NCBI GenBank assembly: GCA_018656005.1
Contig: JABHZW010000020.1
Span: 1 to 53,481, forward strand
Source of the DNA: Candidatus Pseudelusimicrobium marinum
GTDB taxonomy: Bacteria; Elusimicrobiota; Elusimicrobia; Elusimicrobiales; Elusimicrobiaceae
Reading direction: 5' to 3'
DNA: 53,481 nucleotides
Shown here: positions 13,951-28,854 of the stretch, piece after piece
Layout: the number at the start of each line of letters is the position of its first letter
How positions within the stretch are numbered: the stretch's first letter is position 1
The notes under the pieces: generated by a model
The model's database searches: none
Seen by the model: only the letters and a program-made list of their open reading frames with translations
Told to the model about the DNA's origin: nothing
Made by a program: the position numbers and the translations under genes

Positions 13951-13977
13951 CTTGTAAAAATTTTACAAAATATAACT

Positions 13978-23992: not shown

Positions 23993-25405
23993 ATGTCTGG
24001 TTCTAAATACAACTTTCACGATATAAAAAACATACATTTTGTAGGCATCGGCGGTGTGGGTATGAGCGCGCTTGCTCAACTTTGTGCTATGAAAGGATGT
24101 GTTGTTTCTGGTTCTGATAGATTAATTAGTAGCGGACATACAGACTTGGCTATTTGGACATATCTTGAAAAATTAAACATAAAAATTTTTCCTCAAGACG
24201 GTTCTGGCATTACAAAAGATGTGCAGTTAATGGTGCTTTCTTCTGCCATTGAAAAAGATAATCTAGAAATTAAAAAAGCAAATGAGCTTGGTATAAAAAT
24301 TATCCATCGTTCTGAACTTTTGGCCTCTTATGTTAACAAACATAAAACAATTGCAATTACAGGAACTTCGGGGAAAAGTACCACCACAAGTATGATTTTT
24401 GAAATTTTAAGAGGTGCTGGTAAAAATCCAAGTTTAATTACGGGTGCATCTTTATTATCTTTACAAAAAGAAGGTTTGTTTGGAAATGTTTACGAATCAA
24501 AATCCGATTTACTTGTAATTGAAGCAGATGAAAGTGATGGCAGTTTAGTAAATTATCATCCACACATTGGCGTTTTGTTAAATATGGAAAAAGACCATAA
24601 AGAATTAGATATTTTGGAAACTTATTTTGATAAATTTAAACAAAATTGTGAACATTTTATTGTAAATGCAGATGAAAAATCACTGGAAAAATTTAAAAAC
24701 GATTGTAAAACTTTTGGTTTAGAACACGGCGATATAAAAGCAACAAATATAAACCTTGGCGGGTTTGAAACTACCTTTGAAATTAATGGTGTCGGGTTTA
24801 GCTTGCCAGAAATAGGTAAATACAATTTATATAATGCAGTAGCTGCAATTTCTGTTTGTGTTCAGCTTGGAGTTTCGCTTTTAGATTGCGCAAAATCGTT
24901 AACAAATTTTGGTGGGGTGTATAAAAGATTTAACAAAATAGGTAGCTTTGGCGAGGGCGAAAACAGAATTGAAGTTATTGACGATTTTGCGCACAACCCA
25001 CACAAAATTTCTGCTTGTCTATCTGCTTGTAGGTTGCGAGGTAAAAGGGTGCTTGCATACTTTCAGCCACACGCACATTATAGTGTGAAATTACTTGCAA
25101 AAGAATTTGCAGAAACTTTTGAAACCGATATAAAAGATTCTGATATTATGTGGCTTGCAGATATTTATTATCCAGGTGGAACTGTTGACGAAAAGGTATC
25201 TTCTAAAGATATTTTAAGTTTAATGAAGGATAGCAAGAATATTAAAAATATCGGGAATAAGCAGCAAGAAATGGCAGACATAATAGAAACAGCAAAAGAA
25301 GGGGATGTAATAGTTGTAATGGGTGCGAGAGATCCTGGTTTAACTCAATTCGCTAGAAATATTTTTGAAGGTGTTAAGAAGAAAGTTTCTTCACAAGTTG
25401 TTTAA
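23993..25405 (+). CDS. murC: UDP-N-acetylmuramate--L-alanine ligase
   Basis: Adds L-Ala to UDP-MurNAc in the cytoplasm. 470 residues, normal. N-terminal domain with HFVGIGGVGMSALAQL, ATP loop ITGTSGKSTTTSMI at about 120-132, central EADESDGSLV, and C-terminal DDFAHNPHKI and GARDPGLTQFA. It is the last plus-strand gene of the DAP run and its end overlaps the convergent murD by 32 bp. Confidence 0.96.
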   Translation: MSGSKYNFHDIKNIHFVGIGGVGMSALAQLCAMKGCVVSGSDRLISSGHTDLAIWTYLEKLNIKIFPQDGSGITKDVQLMVLSSAIEKDNLEIKKANELGIKIIHRSELLASYVNKHKTIAITGTSGKSTTTSMIFEILRGAGKNPSLITGASLLSLQKEGLFGNVYESKSDLLVIEADESDGSLVNYHPHIGVLLNMEKDHKELDILETYFDKFKQNCEHFIVNADEKSLEKFKNDCKTFGLEHGDIKATNINLGGFETTFEINGVGFSLPEIGKYNLYNAVAAISVCVQLGVSLLDCAKSLTNFGGVYKRFNKIGSFGEGENRIEVIDDFAHNPHKISACLSACRLRGKRVLAYFQPHAHYSVKLLAKEFAETFETDIKDSDIMWLADIYYPGGTVDEKVSSKDILSLMKDSKNIKNIGNKQQEMADIIETAKEGDVIVVMGARDPGLTQFARNIFEGVKKKVSSQVV

Positions 25406-26621
25406 AATCTTTGCCACGAATTTCAAAATTTTTATAACAATCAAAACTGGAACATGCAGGAGATAGTAAAACTATATCTCCTTTTTTTGCGGTTTTAAAA
25501 GCAAAATTTACAGCTTCTTCCATTGTTTTTGATAAGACAAGTTTATTTGTGATTTTTAAATCTCTTACAATTTCTTTTTCGGCATTACCAATAACTAAAA
25601 CTTTTTTTATGCTAGCATCTATATATTTTTTTAACGGTTTATAGCTATCACCTTTATCTTTTCCGCCTAAAATTAGGAAAATATTTTTATTTTCTTTTTT
25701 GCAAAAAGTTTTAAGTGCCGTTATGGTAGAATCTACATTAGTTGCCTTGCTGTCGTTGATAAAAGTTATGTCGTTAATTTTCGCAAACTCTTCTATTCTA
25801 TGTTCCACACCCTTAAAATTATCAAACGCTTTTTGAATACTGCTAATTGAAATACCCATAGCATTTGCCATTTGATAAGATGCCATTGCGTTTTGTAAAT
25901 TATGTCCACCTTTTATTTTTGGTGGTGTTAATTTTTTAGGCATCGCAAAATGTAAAATTTTTGGTTTTGCCCTTGCGGTTAATTTTTTAACAAGAACATC
26001 TCTTTGGTTGATTATCAAAAAGTCTGACTTGTTTTGATTACCAAAAATTTTACATTTTGCTTTTATATATTTACTAAAACTTCCGTGATGAAAAACATGA
26101 TCGTTGGTAATATTTAAAAGTGCAGAAACTGTCGGTTTAAAGTAGGTACTATCCTCTAGCTGATAGCTGGAAAGTTCCAATACCAAAAAATCGCCCTTTT
26201 TAATTTTAGTAGCGAAACTGGAAACTGGAAAACCGATATTCCCACAAGTAAAAACAGAGTTTTTTAGTTTTTTATCTTTAATATGTTGTTTGAAAATTTT
26301 AGAAGTAAGTTCTGTGGTTGTGGTTTTACCATTTGTACCTGTAATGGCGATAATATTTATGCCATTAGGTGCAAAAGCTAAGCCAACTTCAAGTTCTGAA
26401 AAAATAGGTTTTTTTTGTGCGACAATTTTTTTAATAACAGCATTATTAAAACTTATGCCGGGGCTTTTTATATAAAAGTCGTAGCCTAAAACATCATCTT
26501 CTGTGTTTTTTAAAACTACATTAAATTTCTTTTGTTTTAAAAGTTCAAATACCGCTTGACCGCTTTTACCAGCACCCAAAACACAGGCTTTTTTACTTTT
26601 AAATTTTTTAGGATTAAACAT
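25374..26621 (-). CDS. murD: UDP-N-acetylmuramoylalanine--D-glutamate ligase
   Basis: Adds D-Glu to UDP-MurNAc-L-Ala. 415 residues, slightly short. N-terminal VLGAGKSGQAVFELL, ATP loop ITGTNGKTTTTELT at about 95-107, central ALLNITNDHVFHHG and C-terminal FINDSKATNVDSTI and LLSPACSSFDCYKNFEIRG. The start overlaps murE by 8 bp. The gene is convergent with murC, with overlapping 3' ends. Confidence 0.96.
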   Translation of the reverse strand: MFNPKKFKSKKACVLGAGKSGQAVFELLKQKKFNVVLKNTEDDVLGYDFYIKSPGISFNNAVIKKIVAQKKPIFSELEVGLAFAPNGINIIAITGTNGKTTTTELTSKIFKQHIKDKKLKNSVFTCGNIGFPVSSFATKIKKGDFLVLELSSYQLEDSTYFKPTVSALLNITNDHVFHHGSFSKYIKAKCKIFGNQNKSDFLIINQRDVLVKKLTARAKPKILHFAMPKKLTPPKIKGGHNLQNAMASYQMANAMGISISSIQKAFDNFKGVEHRIEEFAKINDITFINDSKATNVDSTITALKTFCKKENKNIFLILGGKDKGDSYKPLKKYIDASIKKVLVIGNAEKEIVRDLKITNKLVLSKTMEEAVNFAFKTAKKGDIVLLSPACSSFDCYKNFEIRGKDFKQLVKKLSS

Positions 26622-28059
26622 TTTGTTTTATAGCCTCTTTAATAACTTCTTCGTCGGAGAAATGTATAGTTTTATCTGCAAATAATTGATAATCTTCATG
26701 CCCTTTACCTGCAACAATAACAATATCGTTTTCTTCCGCCATTTTTATAGCTTGGCAAATTGCTTCTTTTCTGTCTGACACAATTTTGTAATTTTTTTTA
26801 TCTTTTATACCAGCTTCAATATCTTTAAAAATTTGTTCTTGCGGTTCTTTTCGCGGATTGTCATTAGTTATAAAAACGAAGTCTGACATTTGGCACGCAG
26901 TTTGTCCCATCAAAGGTCTTTTTGTAGTATCCCGCTGTCCGCCACAGCCAAAAACGGTTATTATTTTTGATTTTTTAAATTGAGCTAAAGTTGATAATGC
27001 TTTATCTAAACTTTCTTGTGTGTAGGCAAAATCTACAAAAGCGTAAAAGTTTTGACCTTCATCTATCCTCTGCAATCTGCCTGGCACTTGTTTAAGTTTA
27101 GATAAGCCAGAAATTGCGGTATCAATATCTATGCCTACACTTTCAGCAAGTGCCAATGTTGCCAAGGCATTATAAATATTATGTTTGCCAAGTAAATTTA
27201 TTTTTACTTTTTTATTTTTGAAAGTAAAACTTACACCTTCAATATTTGTTTGAATATTTGTGGCATCTTTAAAACTAAAAGGGATAACTTTTATTTTATT
27301 ATCAATATGTTTAATTAATTTTTGACCATATTCGTCGTCGATATTAATAATTGCTGTTTTGTTTGGTTTTGTGTTTTCTTTTGATAATAAATTATCGAAA
27401 AGTTTTACTTTACTTTTAAAATAATTTTCAAAAGTTTCATGGAAATCTAAATGATCTCTTTGTAAATTTGTAAACACTGCACGATTAAAGTTTATGTTTC
27501 TTACCCGTCCAAGTTCTAAAGAATGCGACGAAACTTCCATAACCAAGTTTGAAGTTTTATTTTCATTAAAAGAATTTAATAAATTATAAAGGTCTAGTGC
27601 GTGAGGGGTAGTGTTTTTTGCCTTCTTAATAATTTTGCCGTTTTGACGATAATTAATCGTACCAATAACCGCATTTTTTTTATTTGCTTCGTTTAAAACA
27701 CTTTCAAATAAATATGTAATACTCGTTTTACCTTTTGTGCCGGTAATTGCTGTAATATCCAAACTTTCTGCTGGTTGATTGTAGAAGATGTTTGCGACAT
27801 CTGCCATAGCATTAGCGATGTTTGCTACTTTTATATATGGCACGGCAATTTTTTCTGAACATTCTTGTTCAGAAAAAATTGCGACAGCACCTTGCTTAAC
27901 AGCATTAACTATAAACAAATTGCCGTCCACATTACTACCTTTTACTGCAAAAAATATATACCCGTCCTTAACTTCTTTAGAGTTTAGGGTTAAGCCTACC
28001 ACCTGTCGCGGGGGTACTTCATTTTTGGTAAACTTTTTAAGTAGGGTGTTTATATCCAT
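26614..28059 (-). CDS. murE: UDP-MurNAc-tripeptide synthetase, meso-DAP type
   Basis: Adds the third peptide residue to UDP-MurNAc-L-Ala-D-Glu. 481 residues. ATP loop ITGTKGKTSITYL at about 110-122; MEVSSHSLELGRV; the substrate motif TNDNPRKEP holds DNPR, typical of meso-DAP-adding enzymes. This fits the dap genes next to it. The codons around AIFSEQECSEKIA form a 16-bp perfect inverted repeat (27845-27882). A TATTAT box (28066-28071) is 6 nt before ATG; only 18 bp separate it from the divergent gene. Confidence 0.96.
   Translation of the reverse strand: MDINTLLKKFTKNEVPPRQVVGLTLNSKEVKDGYIFFAVKGSNVDGNLFIVNAVKQGAVAIFSEQECSEKIAVPYIKVANIANAMADVANIFYNQPAESLDITAITGTKGKTSITYLFESVLNEANKKNAVIGTINYRQNGKIIKKAKNTTPHALDLYNLLNSFNENKTSNLVMEVSSHSLELGRVRNINFNRAVFTNLQRDHLDFHETFENYFKSKVKLFDNLLSKENTKPNKTAIINIDDEYGQKLIKHIDNKIKVIPFSFKDATNIQTNIEGVSFTFKNKKVKINLLGKHNIYNALATLALAESVGIDIDTAISGLSKLKQVPGRLQRIDEGQNFYAFVDFAYTQESLDKALSTLAQFKKSKIITVFGCGGQRDTTKRPLMGQTACQMSDFVFITNDNPRKEPQEQIFKDIEAGIKDKKNYKIVSDRKEAICQAIKMAEENDIVIVAGKGHEDYQLFADKTIHFSDEEVIKEAIKQNV
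27845..27882. repeat. 16-bp perfect inverted repeat inside murE
   Basis: GCAATTTTTTCTGAAC and its exact complement around a 6-nt loop. It is in the coding region near the N-terminal domain and could not act as a terminator without truncating MurE. Confidence 0.8.
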
Positions 28060-28077
28060 AACTAAATAATATCAAAT
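28060..28077. promoter_or_regulatory. 18-bp divergent promoter between murE and 28078 gene
   Basis: Both ATGs face away from an 18-bp gap with no Shine-Dalgarno on either side. TATTAT (minus, 28066-28071) is 6 nt from murE ATG, and AATAAT (plus, 28065-28070) is 7 nt from the other ATG, so the two -10 boxes would overlap. Confidence 0.45.
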
Positions 28078-28854
28078 ATGAAAAATTTAAATATAGAATT
28101 GCTAGAAAATACTTATAAAGAATATAATAAGCGGAAATTTGTGTCGCCAGACCCTCTTCAGTTTCTCTATGCCTATAAAGATATAAAAGATAGGGAAATT
28201 GTGGCATTAATAGCTTCTAGTTTTGCCTATGGCAATGTAAAACAAATAATAAAAACGGTTGATAAAATTTTGAATAAATTAGGCAAACATCCACACAAAA
28301 CCATAACAACAAATTCACAAGAAGATTTTGAAAAATTATTTAGAGGTTTTAAATACAGATTTACAACAAGCCAACAACTTGTAAATTTTCTGCTAGCGAT
28401 ACAAAACACTTTAAAAAAATACGGCAGTTTGGAACGGTGCTTTTTGGCAAAATATAGTCGAAACAGCAAAAATGTTTTACCAGCCCTAAAACATTTTTGC
28501 AAAGAACTAAGAAGCTATGGCAATGTTAAAAGTTTAATGCCAGATCCAGAAAAAACATCTGCCTTAAAAAGAATTAATTTATGTCTGCGGTGGCTAGTGC
28601 GAAAAGACTCCGTGGATACTGGCGGGTGGAACAAAATCAACAAAAGTCATTTAATTGTGCCATTGGATACTCATATGCACAGCATAGCGAAAAATTTAGG
28701 GCTAACAAATCGCAAACCAGCGGATATGAAAACTGCTCTTGAAATCACTAAAAATTTTGCTAAACTGAATGTAGGAGATCCTGTAAAATACGATTTTTGT
28801 TTAACTCGTTTCGGCATTAGGGACGATATGAGTATAAAGGATATAGGTTGTTAG
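28078..28854 (+). CDS. TIGR02757-like protein (DUF2400)
   Basis: 258 residues. The regions PDPLQFLYAYKDIKDREIVALI, ASSFAYGNVKQI, RWLVRKDSVDTGGW, LIVPLDTHMHSIAKNLGL and the closing KYDFCLTRFGIR match the TIGR02757 pattern, a conserved protein distantly related to helix-hairpin-helix DNA glycosylases; its activity is unknown. A 14-bp perfect inverted repeat lies in the gene at 28466-28500. The stop is followed by the next gene's ribosome-binding site after only a few bases. Confidence 0.8.
   Translation: MKNLNIELLENTYKEYNKRKFVSPDPLQFLYAYKDIKDREIVALIASSFAYGNVKQIIKTVDKILNKLGKHPHKTITTNSQEDFEKLFRGFKYRFTTSQQLVNFLLAIQNTLKKYGSLERCFLAKYSRNSKNVLPALKHFCKELRSYGNVKSLMPDPEKTSALKRINLCLRWLVRKDSVDTGGWNKINKSHLIVPLDTHMHSIAKNLGLTNRKPADMKTALEITKNFAKLNVGDPVKYDFCLTRFGIRDDMSIKDIGC
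28466..28500. repeat. 14-bp perfect inverted repeat inside coding region
   Basis: GCAAAAATGTTTTA and its exact complement around a 7-nt loop, in the TIGR02757-like gene. Confidence 0.75.

What the first reader, a model, noticed from the sequence alone, without database searches (positions are those of the whole stretch)
28057..28080. Divergent genes with an 18-bp gap and overlapping -10 boxes
murE and the TIGR02757-like gene start 18 bp apart. With leaderless starts both -10 boxes fall on the same AT sequence, so the two polymerases would compete for one site. The prenyl synthase/QueG-like pair (27 bp) and Nudix/dnaE pair (26 bp) are similar. Such compact divergent promoters are seldom seen in bacteria.
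Basis: partly seen in the sequence, partly recalled or inferred. Interest (0 to 1): 0.5.

Follow-up and report, generated by a model that had tools for sequence, protein, structure and literature searches.

The report
Shared promoter for two leaderless genes
Two back-to-back genes of an uncultured bacterium start only 18 letters apart, and the little DNA between them looks like one promoter readable in both directions; that kind of promoter is known, but here it seems to begin right at both genes' start codons, and the gene pair is kept in related bacteria.

Summary
murE (start 28059, -) and a DUF2400/TIGR02757 gene (start 28078, +) are 18 bp apart; in-frame stops inside the gap fix both starts, and no Shine-Dalgarno sequence is seen. 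murE has an extended -10 (TGATATTAT, 6 bp from ATG). The partner's best box (AATAAT, 7 bp) overlaps it so that -11A and -7T of one strand pair with -7T and -11A of the other: the commonest (18 bp) geometry of known bidirectional promoters (PMC10268837). For this gap alone the evidence is weak (shuffle frequency 0.033). Relatives give more: the pair is head-to-head in 41 of 43 genomes with both genes, 22 loci read have gaps of 10 to 36 bp except one of 91, and a symmetric double extended -10 has ATG 5-9 bp away on both sides in 17 of 24 matches. 'Seldom seen' is not supported: 19% of E. coli RNAs detected come from bidirectional promoters (PMC12825309). Competition is possible, but at five tested E. 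coli promoters basal activity was too low for it. Verdict: a leaderless variant of a known promoter kind; no transcript data.

The parts
26614..28059 (-). murE (UDP-MurNAc-tripeptide synthetase), left gene; predicted leaderless
   Evidence: NF001126.0 E 3.2e-155; in-frame stop TGA at 28074, no start further out
28078..28854 (+). DUF2400/TIGR02757 gene, right gene; predicted leaderless
   Evidence: TIGR02757.1 E 1.1e-69, PF09674 E 4.2e-79; in-frame stop TAA at 28063, no start further out
28060..28077 (.). 18-bp intergenic gap, proposed bidirectional promoter core
   Evidence: sequence; an 18-bp gap differing at 3 bases lies between gatB and MurJ in the same genome
28066..28074 (-). extended -10 of murE: TG at 28074-28073, TATTAT at 28071-28066, 6 bp from ATG
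   Evidence: sequence; agrees with the own-genome profile of -10-led genes; score 1.99, shuffle frequency 0.068
28065..28070 (+). -10 of the TIGR02757 gene: AATAAT, 7 bp from ATG (alternative TAATAT 28067-28072, 5 bp); no TG extension
   Evidence: best-scoring hexamer, score 1.55, shuffle frequency 0.34 on its own

Best explanation
The 18-bp gap is one bidirectional, sigma70-type promoter whose two outputs are leaderless mRNAs. RNA polymerase can melt the same AT-rich stretch in either orientation; the -11A and -7T of the murE promoter (28070, 28066) are base-paired with the -7T and -11A of the partner's promoter (shown in sequence). Transcription then starts at or within a base or so of each ATG (inferred), so the start codons take the place of 5' UTRs and the gap shrinks to the promoter core itself. 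Only one polymerase can sit there at a time, so binding is mutually exclusive (inferred), but with weak promoters (no clear -35, imperfect right box) both genes should be made at modest independent levels; murE should be the stronger side in this genome because only it has the TG extension (inferred). Across the family the pair is held while the core takes several geometries: fully overlapping (10-11 and 18 bp), overlapping extended -10s (25 bp) and two extended -10s back to back (33-36 bp).
For: Starts fixed by stops, no SD seen. Own-genome start model on 446,381 of 1,201,473 bases: 23% of genes -10-led, box most often 6 bp from the start; 33 of 82 genes with a divergent upstream neighbour are -10-led against 51 of 299 with a same-strand neighbour. 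The 32 best -10-led promoters show A/T-rich sequence, TTG-n-TAwAAT and no clear -35. All 9 divergent pairs with a gap of 28 bp or less, of 248 in six family samples (one negative-gap pair dropped), are -10-led on both sides, against 36 of the other 239 (Fisher 1e-7); with starts called without any -10 term 7 of the 9 short gaps remain. Head-to-head pair in 41 of 43 genomes with both genes. Symmetric module ATNNTANCAAATTGNTANNAT: 24 matches in 60 genomes, 1 match for the reversed pattern; an ATG opening a long ORF 5-9 bp away on both sides in 17 of 24 and on at least one side in 23 of 24, in four different gene pairs. A second pair (gatB/MurJ) in the same genome has CATAGTTATATAATATCAAATATG, 18 bp, and is head-to-head in 75 of 86 genomes with both genes. 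A third kind, palindromic extended -10 between two start codons: pattern matched in 80 of 90 genomes, 1 match reversed; gene pair read in two of them. Two-sided -10 score over 16 distinct murE gaps: Fisher 2.7e-6 (relatives are not independent). Geometry as described in PMC10268837 and PMC12825309.
Against: No transcript data. For the window's own gap the test is weak (0.033; right box alone 0.34) and the right box lacks -12T and TG. Both sides score above zero in only 9 of 22 loci; L002 (presumed E. minutum) and L007 have no good murE box, L014, L015 and L017 score below zero on both sides, L003 has a 91-bp gap. The 18-bp pattern is only modestly enriched over the family (53 matches vs 15 reversed; the window's own site does not match it), and when the right ATG is allowed at 2-12 bp, positions 6-7 hold 47 of the 150 listed matches, about twice the mean of the other positions. 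Three further own-genome matches to the 24-bp unit (1 to 3 mismatches) have no gene behind the right ATG, so that triplet can arise as plain promoter flank. Over all 248 pairs, both-sided -10-led pairs are hardly in excess (45 vs 39 expected). One genome of the neighbouring family f2 also has a 20-bp gap among its 30 pairs. The symmetric CAAATTG module has no match in the window's genome.
Confidence: 0.66

Rival explanations
1. Only murE is driven from the gap; the TIGR02757 gene is transcribed from a weak or distant promoter inside murE, and the apparent right box is the complement of murE's own symmetric, AT-rich -10.
For: The right box is reached by a third of shuffles and lacks TG; three other own-genome matches to the unit have no gene on the right.
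Against: The right gene has no SD and no start further out; in the 11 loci with 33-36-bp gaps the right gene has the stronger box in 10 (TAGAAT, TAAAAT or TACAAT, mostly 6 bp from ATG), and the head-to-head arrangement is kept in 41 of 43 genomes.
Confidence: 0.2
2. The symmetric sequence is an operator for a dimeric regulator that controls both genes, rather than (or besides) a double promoter.
For: The CAAATTG-centred module of relatives is a near-perfect inverted repeat found in genera g2, g3 and g6.
Against: The symmetry is accounted for by two copies of the single-gene leaderless promoter profile back to back; the module recurs at unrelated gene pairs with ATG at the leaderless distance; the window's own 18-bp gap lacks the right half and would leave little room for operator plus promoters.
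Confidence: 0.08
3. Compaction with no regulatory content: a small genome brought two leaderless genes as close as their promoters allow; overlap is neutral and there is no useful interference. This concerns purpose and is compatible with the best explanation.
For: Low basal activity of five bidirectional promoters gave no interference in E. coli (PMC12825309, abstract); gap lengths at the pair vary from 10 to 91 bp between relatives.
Against: Long retention of the pair (41 of 43 genomes) argues for some constraint, though overlapping promoters by themselves would hinder rearrangement.
Confidence: 0.5

Closest known systems
Bidirectional promoters of bacteria (Warman, Grainger and colleagues; PMC12825309 abstract, introduction and passages read, PMC10268837 two of three parts read; the 2021 Nature Microbiology paper not held)
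   Same: Shared -10 with reciprocal -11A/-7T, 18 bp as the commonest spacing with 10 and 23 bp also common, -35 not needed
   Different: There the spacing is between mapped TSSs; here it is between start codons, both genes look leaderless, and transcription is inferred only. That the E. coli mRNAs carry leaders is my recall, not something I read in these papers
Leaderless (TA-led) bacterial genes (Zheng et al., PMC3160421, passages read)
   Same: -10-like TANNNT about 12 bp upstream of the start, no SD
   Different: Single genes in the passages seen; the word 'divergent' had no occurrence in the main text
Divergent leaderless promoters of M. tuberculosis, prpD (Rv1130)/Rv1129c (PMC3898074, one figure legend read)
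   Same: Divergent neighbours, leaderless mRNAs; legend calls closely juxtaposed divergent promoters common
   Different: The legend gives no spacing or shared -10 geometry
EcoRV divergent overlapping promoters (PMC5333194, passages read)
   Same: Two divergent promoters with overlapping RNA polymerase sites
   Different: Regulated by a C protein; restriction-modification genes

Membership tests
Bidirectional promoter (definition in PMC10268837) | Divergent TSSs 7-25 bp apart on opposite strands | not testable with these tools
   No transcript data; the first bases of the start codons are 19 positions apart (28059, 28078)
Bidirectional promoter (definition in PMC10268837) | -10 elements overlap so that -11A and -7T coincide reciprocally | tested here: met
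   Sequence at 28066 and 28070 with the boxes; same at gatB/MurJ C17:16140. Holds only if AATAAT is the right box
Bidirectional promoter (definition in PMC10268837) | RNA made in both directions | not testable with these tools
   needs 5'-end mapping
Leaderless gene pair | -10-like box about 6-7 bp before the start codon, on each side | tested here: inconclusive
   murE side good (TGATATTAT, 6 bp; shuffle frequency 0.068); right side AATAAT, 7 bp, reached by a third of shuffles
Leaderless gene pair | No Shine-Dalgarno sequence and no alternative start further out | tested here: met
   (both labelled -10-led)
Operator of a dimeric regulator | Inverted repeat beyond what two promoters explain, conserved at targets | tested here: inconclusive
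   Symmetric module in relatives but explained by the promoter profile

The most novel reading that the evidence does not exclude
In this family of Elusimicrobiota, leaderless bidirectional promoters are a standing, conserved class: start-codon-to-start-codon distance reads out the -10 geometry directly (about 10, 18, 23-25 and 33-36 bp), the same gene pairs (murE/DUF2400, gatB/MurJ, NIF3/secreted protein) are kept across genera while the core moves between these geometries, and mutually exclusive polymerase binding sets the ratio of the two products.
Probability: 0.4. Interest if true: 0.6.

Novelty: new variant of a known kind. Interest (0 to 1): 0.4.

Why it matters
If right, bidirectional promoters can be read from sequence alone in uncultured bacteria, because both start codons mark the start sites, and their evolution can be followed over a family: which geometries interconvert, and whether pairs that share a promoter core resist rearrangement. 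It also gives minimal natural test cases (18 and 10 bp) for how one RNA polymerase site serves two genes.

Tried and rejected
Rarity: I could not show that short divergent gaps are more frequent here than in the neighbouring family (9 of 248 pairs at 28 bp or less in six f1 samples against 1 of 30 in one f2 genome), so 'seldom seen' is neither rescued nor needed. General excess of pairs -10-led on both sides: 45 observed, 39 expected; only the shortest gaps differ. Own-genome search for the 24-bp unit: 6 matches at up to 3 mismatches, reversed control 0; besides murE and gatB/MurJ, three were placed and none has a gene at the right ATG; the fourth (C41) was not placed by my script and does not end in ATG. 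Symmetric CAAATTG module: 0 matches in the window's genome, so the window's gap is another geometry and not a copy of the relatives' module. The second version of the start caller did not choose the 18-bp starts at gatB/MurJ, so that pair is but not in the counts. The reversed-pattern control for the 18-bp pattern overstates the case, because one-sided promoters also produce matches; the spacing scan is fairer and gives about twofold on the 150 matches listed (more exist, not listed). Papers: the listings showed no paper on leaderless bidirectional promoters of bacteria that I recognised, but of the four papers holding both 'bidirectional promoters' and 'leaderless' I read passages of one (PMC6640164, archaeal), so I do not claim that it is not in print. 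Searches for Elusimicrobi with leaderless and Elusimicrobium minutum with transcriptome: no start-site map evident in the titles listed; not read. Mesoplasma florum (PMC7745072, passages) reports a pair of divergent genes on back-to-back overlapping promoters and some leaderless mRNAs, again a precedent.

Full report
What is there. The window is contig C28 of a 1.2-Mb genome, 33% G+C in the 446 kb that I read. Among the named records, the one with the contig length of G034:C30 is called an uncultured Elusimicrobia bacterium and the next best an uncultured Elusimicrobiales bacterium (the one with the length of G018:C7 is only 'uncultured bacterium'), so I place the window's family f1 in the Elusimicrobiota; that G001 (1,643,562 bp, one contig) is Elusimicrobium minutum is from memory of its size. 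murE starts at 28059 on the minus strand, the DUF2400/TIGR02757 gene at 28078 on the plus strand. The 18 bp between them read AACTAAATAATATCAAAT. Both reading frames are closed by stops inside the gap, so neither gene can start further out, and the next start-like codon is 19 codons (murE) or 7 codons (partner) inside. I see no Shine-Dalgarno sequence on either side, and the start model labels both genes -10-led.

How genes start in this genome. I trained a start model on 446,381 bases, 37% of the genome (20 stretches plus the window). It settles on two signals: AGGAGA-like (76%) and a TAWAAT box most often 6 bp from the start (23%). Among genes with a divergent upstream neighbour 33 of 82 are -10-led, among those with a same-strand neighbour 51 of 299. 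Aligned on the -10, the 32 best show A/T-rich sequence, TTG-n-TAwAAT (G 50% at that place) and no clear -35. In 63 genes with a single candidate start in their first 40 codons, taken without any promoter model, TANAAT stands at -12 in 6 and at any other place in 0-2; the same set shows a purine-rich, SD-like region as its main feature.

Geometry at the finding. On the minus strand the murE promoter is TGATATTAT (28074-28066), 6 bp from ATG. On the plus strand the best box is AATAAT (28065-28070), 7 bp from ATG. So position 28066 is -7T of murE and -11A of the partner, and 28070 the reverse. This is the reciprocal arrangement that PMC10268837 (two of three parts read) gives for divergent start sites 18 bp apart; PMC12825309 (abstract, introduction and passages read) names 18 bp the commonest distance with 10 and 23 also common. 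The right box is imperfect (no -12T, no TG), so I expect murE to be favoured here.

Is it more than chance? For this gap alone, weakly. Shuffling the 18 bases gives a two-sided score as good in 3.3% of cases, the murE side alone in 6.8%, the right side alone in 34%. Over 16 distinct gaps of relatives the combined value is 2.7e-6, not corrected for relatedness; both sides score above zero in 9 of 22 loci.

The pair in relatives. Of 60 genomes (own included) 47 have the TIGR02757 gene; 30 loci were read, 22 of them with murE beside it head-to-head (all but L011 and L024-L030). Over the 90 genomes held of the family 44 have the TIGR02757 gene and 86 have murE; of 43 with both, 41 have them head-to-head with 18 to 109 bases between the match starts; the exceptions are G003 and G004, and G026 has no murE match. 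Gaps at the 22 loci: 10 bp (4), 11 (1), 18 (1), 25 (3; shorter ATG choices of 7 and 19 exist), 26 (1), 33 (3; for one of them a 6-bp choice exists), 34 (3), 35 (3), 36 (2) and 91 bp (1); in 17 of 22 only one ATG/ATG combination is possible.

The symmetric form. In most of the 33-36-bp gaps the sequence is ATG-(about 6)-ATNNTANCAAATTGNTANNAT-(about 6)-ATG, that is, two of the family's single promoters back to back. The bare 21-bp core, with no start codon in the pattern, has 24 matches in 60 genomes against 1 for the reversed pattern. In 17 of the 24 an ATG that opens a long frame lies 5-9 bp away on both sides, in 23 on at least one. The 17 are four gene pairs: murE/DUF2400 (11), a pair with a protein bearing a nucleotide-binding motif (4; my reading), and two single cases. 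In two genomes without the DUF2400 gene (G017, G025) the core beside murE is still there and another gene lies 37-38 bp to its right.

Other compact pairs. gatB/MurJ in the window's genome has CATAGTTATATAATATCAAATATG, an 18-bp gap differing from the murE gap at three bases (families); gatB and MurJ are head-to-head with less than 150 bp between match starts in 75 of 86 genomes with both. A pair of a NIF3-family gene and a predicted secreted protein without Pfam match (genes read in G001 and G007 only) has a 25-bp gap with the palindrome-like ATGNTANCAT, two overlapping extended -10s; the pattern with both flanking start codons occurs in 80 of 90 genomes and once reversed, but not in the window's genome, and I did not check the genes in the other genomes. 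A fully overlapping 10-bp form has 14 sites in 14 genomes, 4 sites reversed; four of the 14 are the murE pair. Of 248 divergent pairs in samples of six genomes (one negative-gap pair dropped), the 9 with gaps up to 28 bp are all -10-led on both sides, 36 of the other 239 are; seven of the nine gaps stand when starts are called without the -10 term.

Counter-evidence. With the right ATG allowed at 2-12 bp, the expected spacing 6-7 holds 47 of the 150 listed matches, only about twofold; the window's own site does not match the 18-bp family pattern, because its right box has A at -12. Three further own-genome matches to the 24-bp unit have no gene to the right. L002 and L007 lack a good murE box, and three 25-bp loci score below zero on both sides. 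Both-sided pairs are hardly in excess overall (45 against 39). One neighbouring-family genome has a 20-bp gap among 30 pairs. So a bidirectional reading is likely, a general rule is not proven.

Shown: gap, starts, boxes, reciprocal geometry, retention of the pair. Inferred: transcription starting at both ATGs, mutual exclusion of polymerases, stronger murE side. PMC12825309 reports that five such E. coli promoters are too weak for competition at basal level, and that competition can appear when one side is strongly activated. So anticorrelation is not predicted by default. The rarity claim fails: 19% of the RNAs detected in E. coli come from bidirectional promoters (PMC12825309), and closely juxtaposed divergent promoters, with a divergent leaderless pair as an example, are reported for M. 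tuberculosis (legend in PMC3898074).

Verdict. A leaderless variant of a known promoter kind, kept at several gene pairs of one bacterial family; likely real, not yet seen in transcripts.

Noticed in passing
window 13952-13968: 17-bp perfect palindrome TTGTAAAAATTTTACAA in the 27-bp gap between an HpnD-like synthase gene and a QueG-like gene; the only exact occurrence in the 446 kb of this genome that I read. It may be an operator rather than a promoter core.
   Followed up: partly
   Followed up: partly
window 25374-25405: A murC-like gene (23993-25405, +; 310.8 bits, under TIGR01082's cut-off of 335.1) and murD (25374-26621, -) overlap tail to tail by 32 bp.
   Followed up: no
L188 2170-2200 (G007) and L173 12684-12714 (G001): NIF3-family gene head-to-head with a secreted-looking protein (no Pfam match for its first 400 residues in G007), sharing a 25-bp gap with an extended -10 palindrome; the pattern occurs in 80 of 90 family genomes.
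   Followed up: partly
L033, L037 (G017, G025): The DUF2400 gene is absent, yet the symmetric promoter core beside murE is kept and another gene (alpha/beta-hydrolase-looking by my reading) lies 37-38 bp to its right.
   Followed up: no
L157 around 1500, L160 around 1500: Two own-genome genes, an IspH-looking and a HypE-looking one (my reading of the translations), have the 24-bp unit upstream with no gene on its other side.
   Followed up: no
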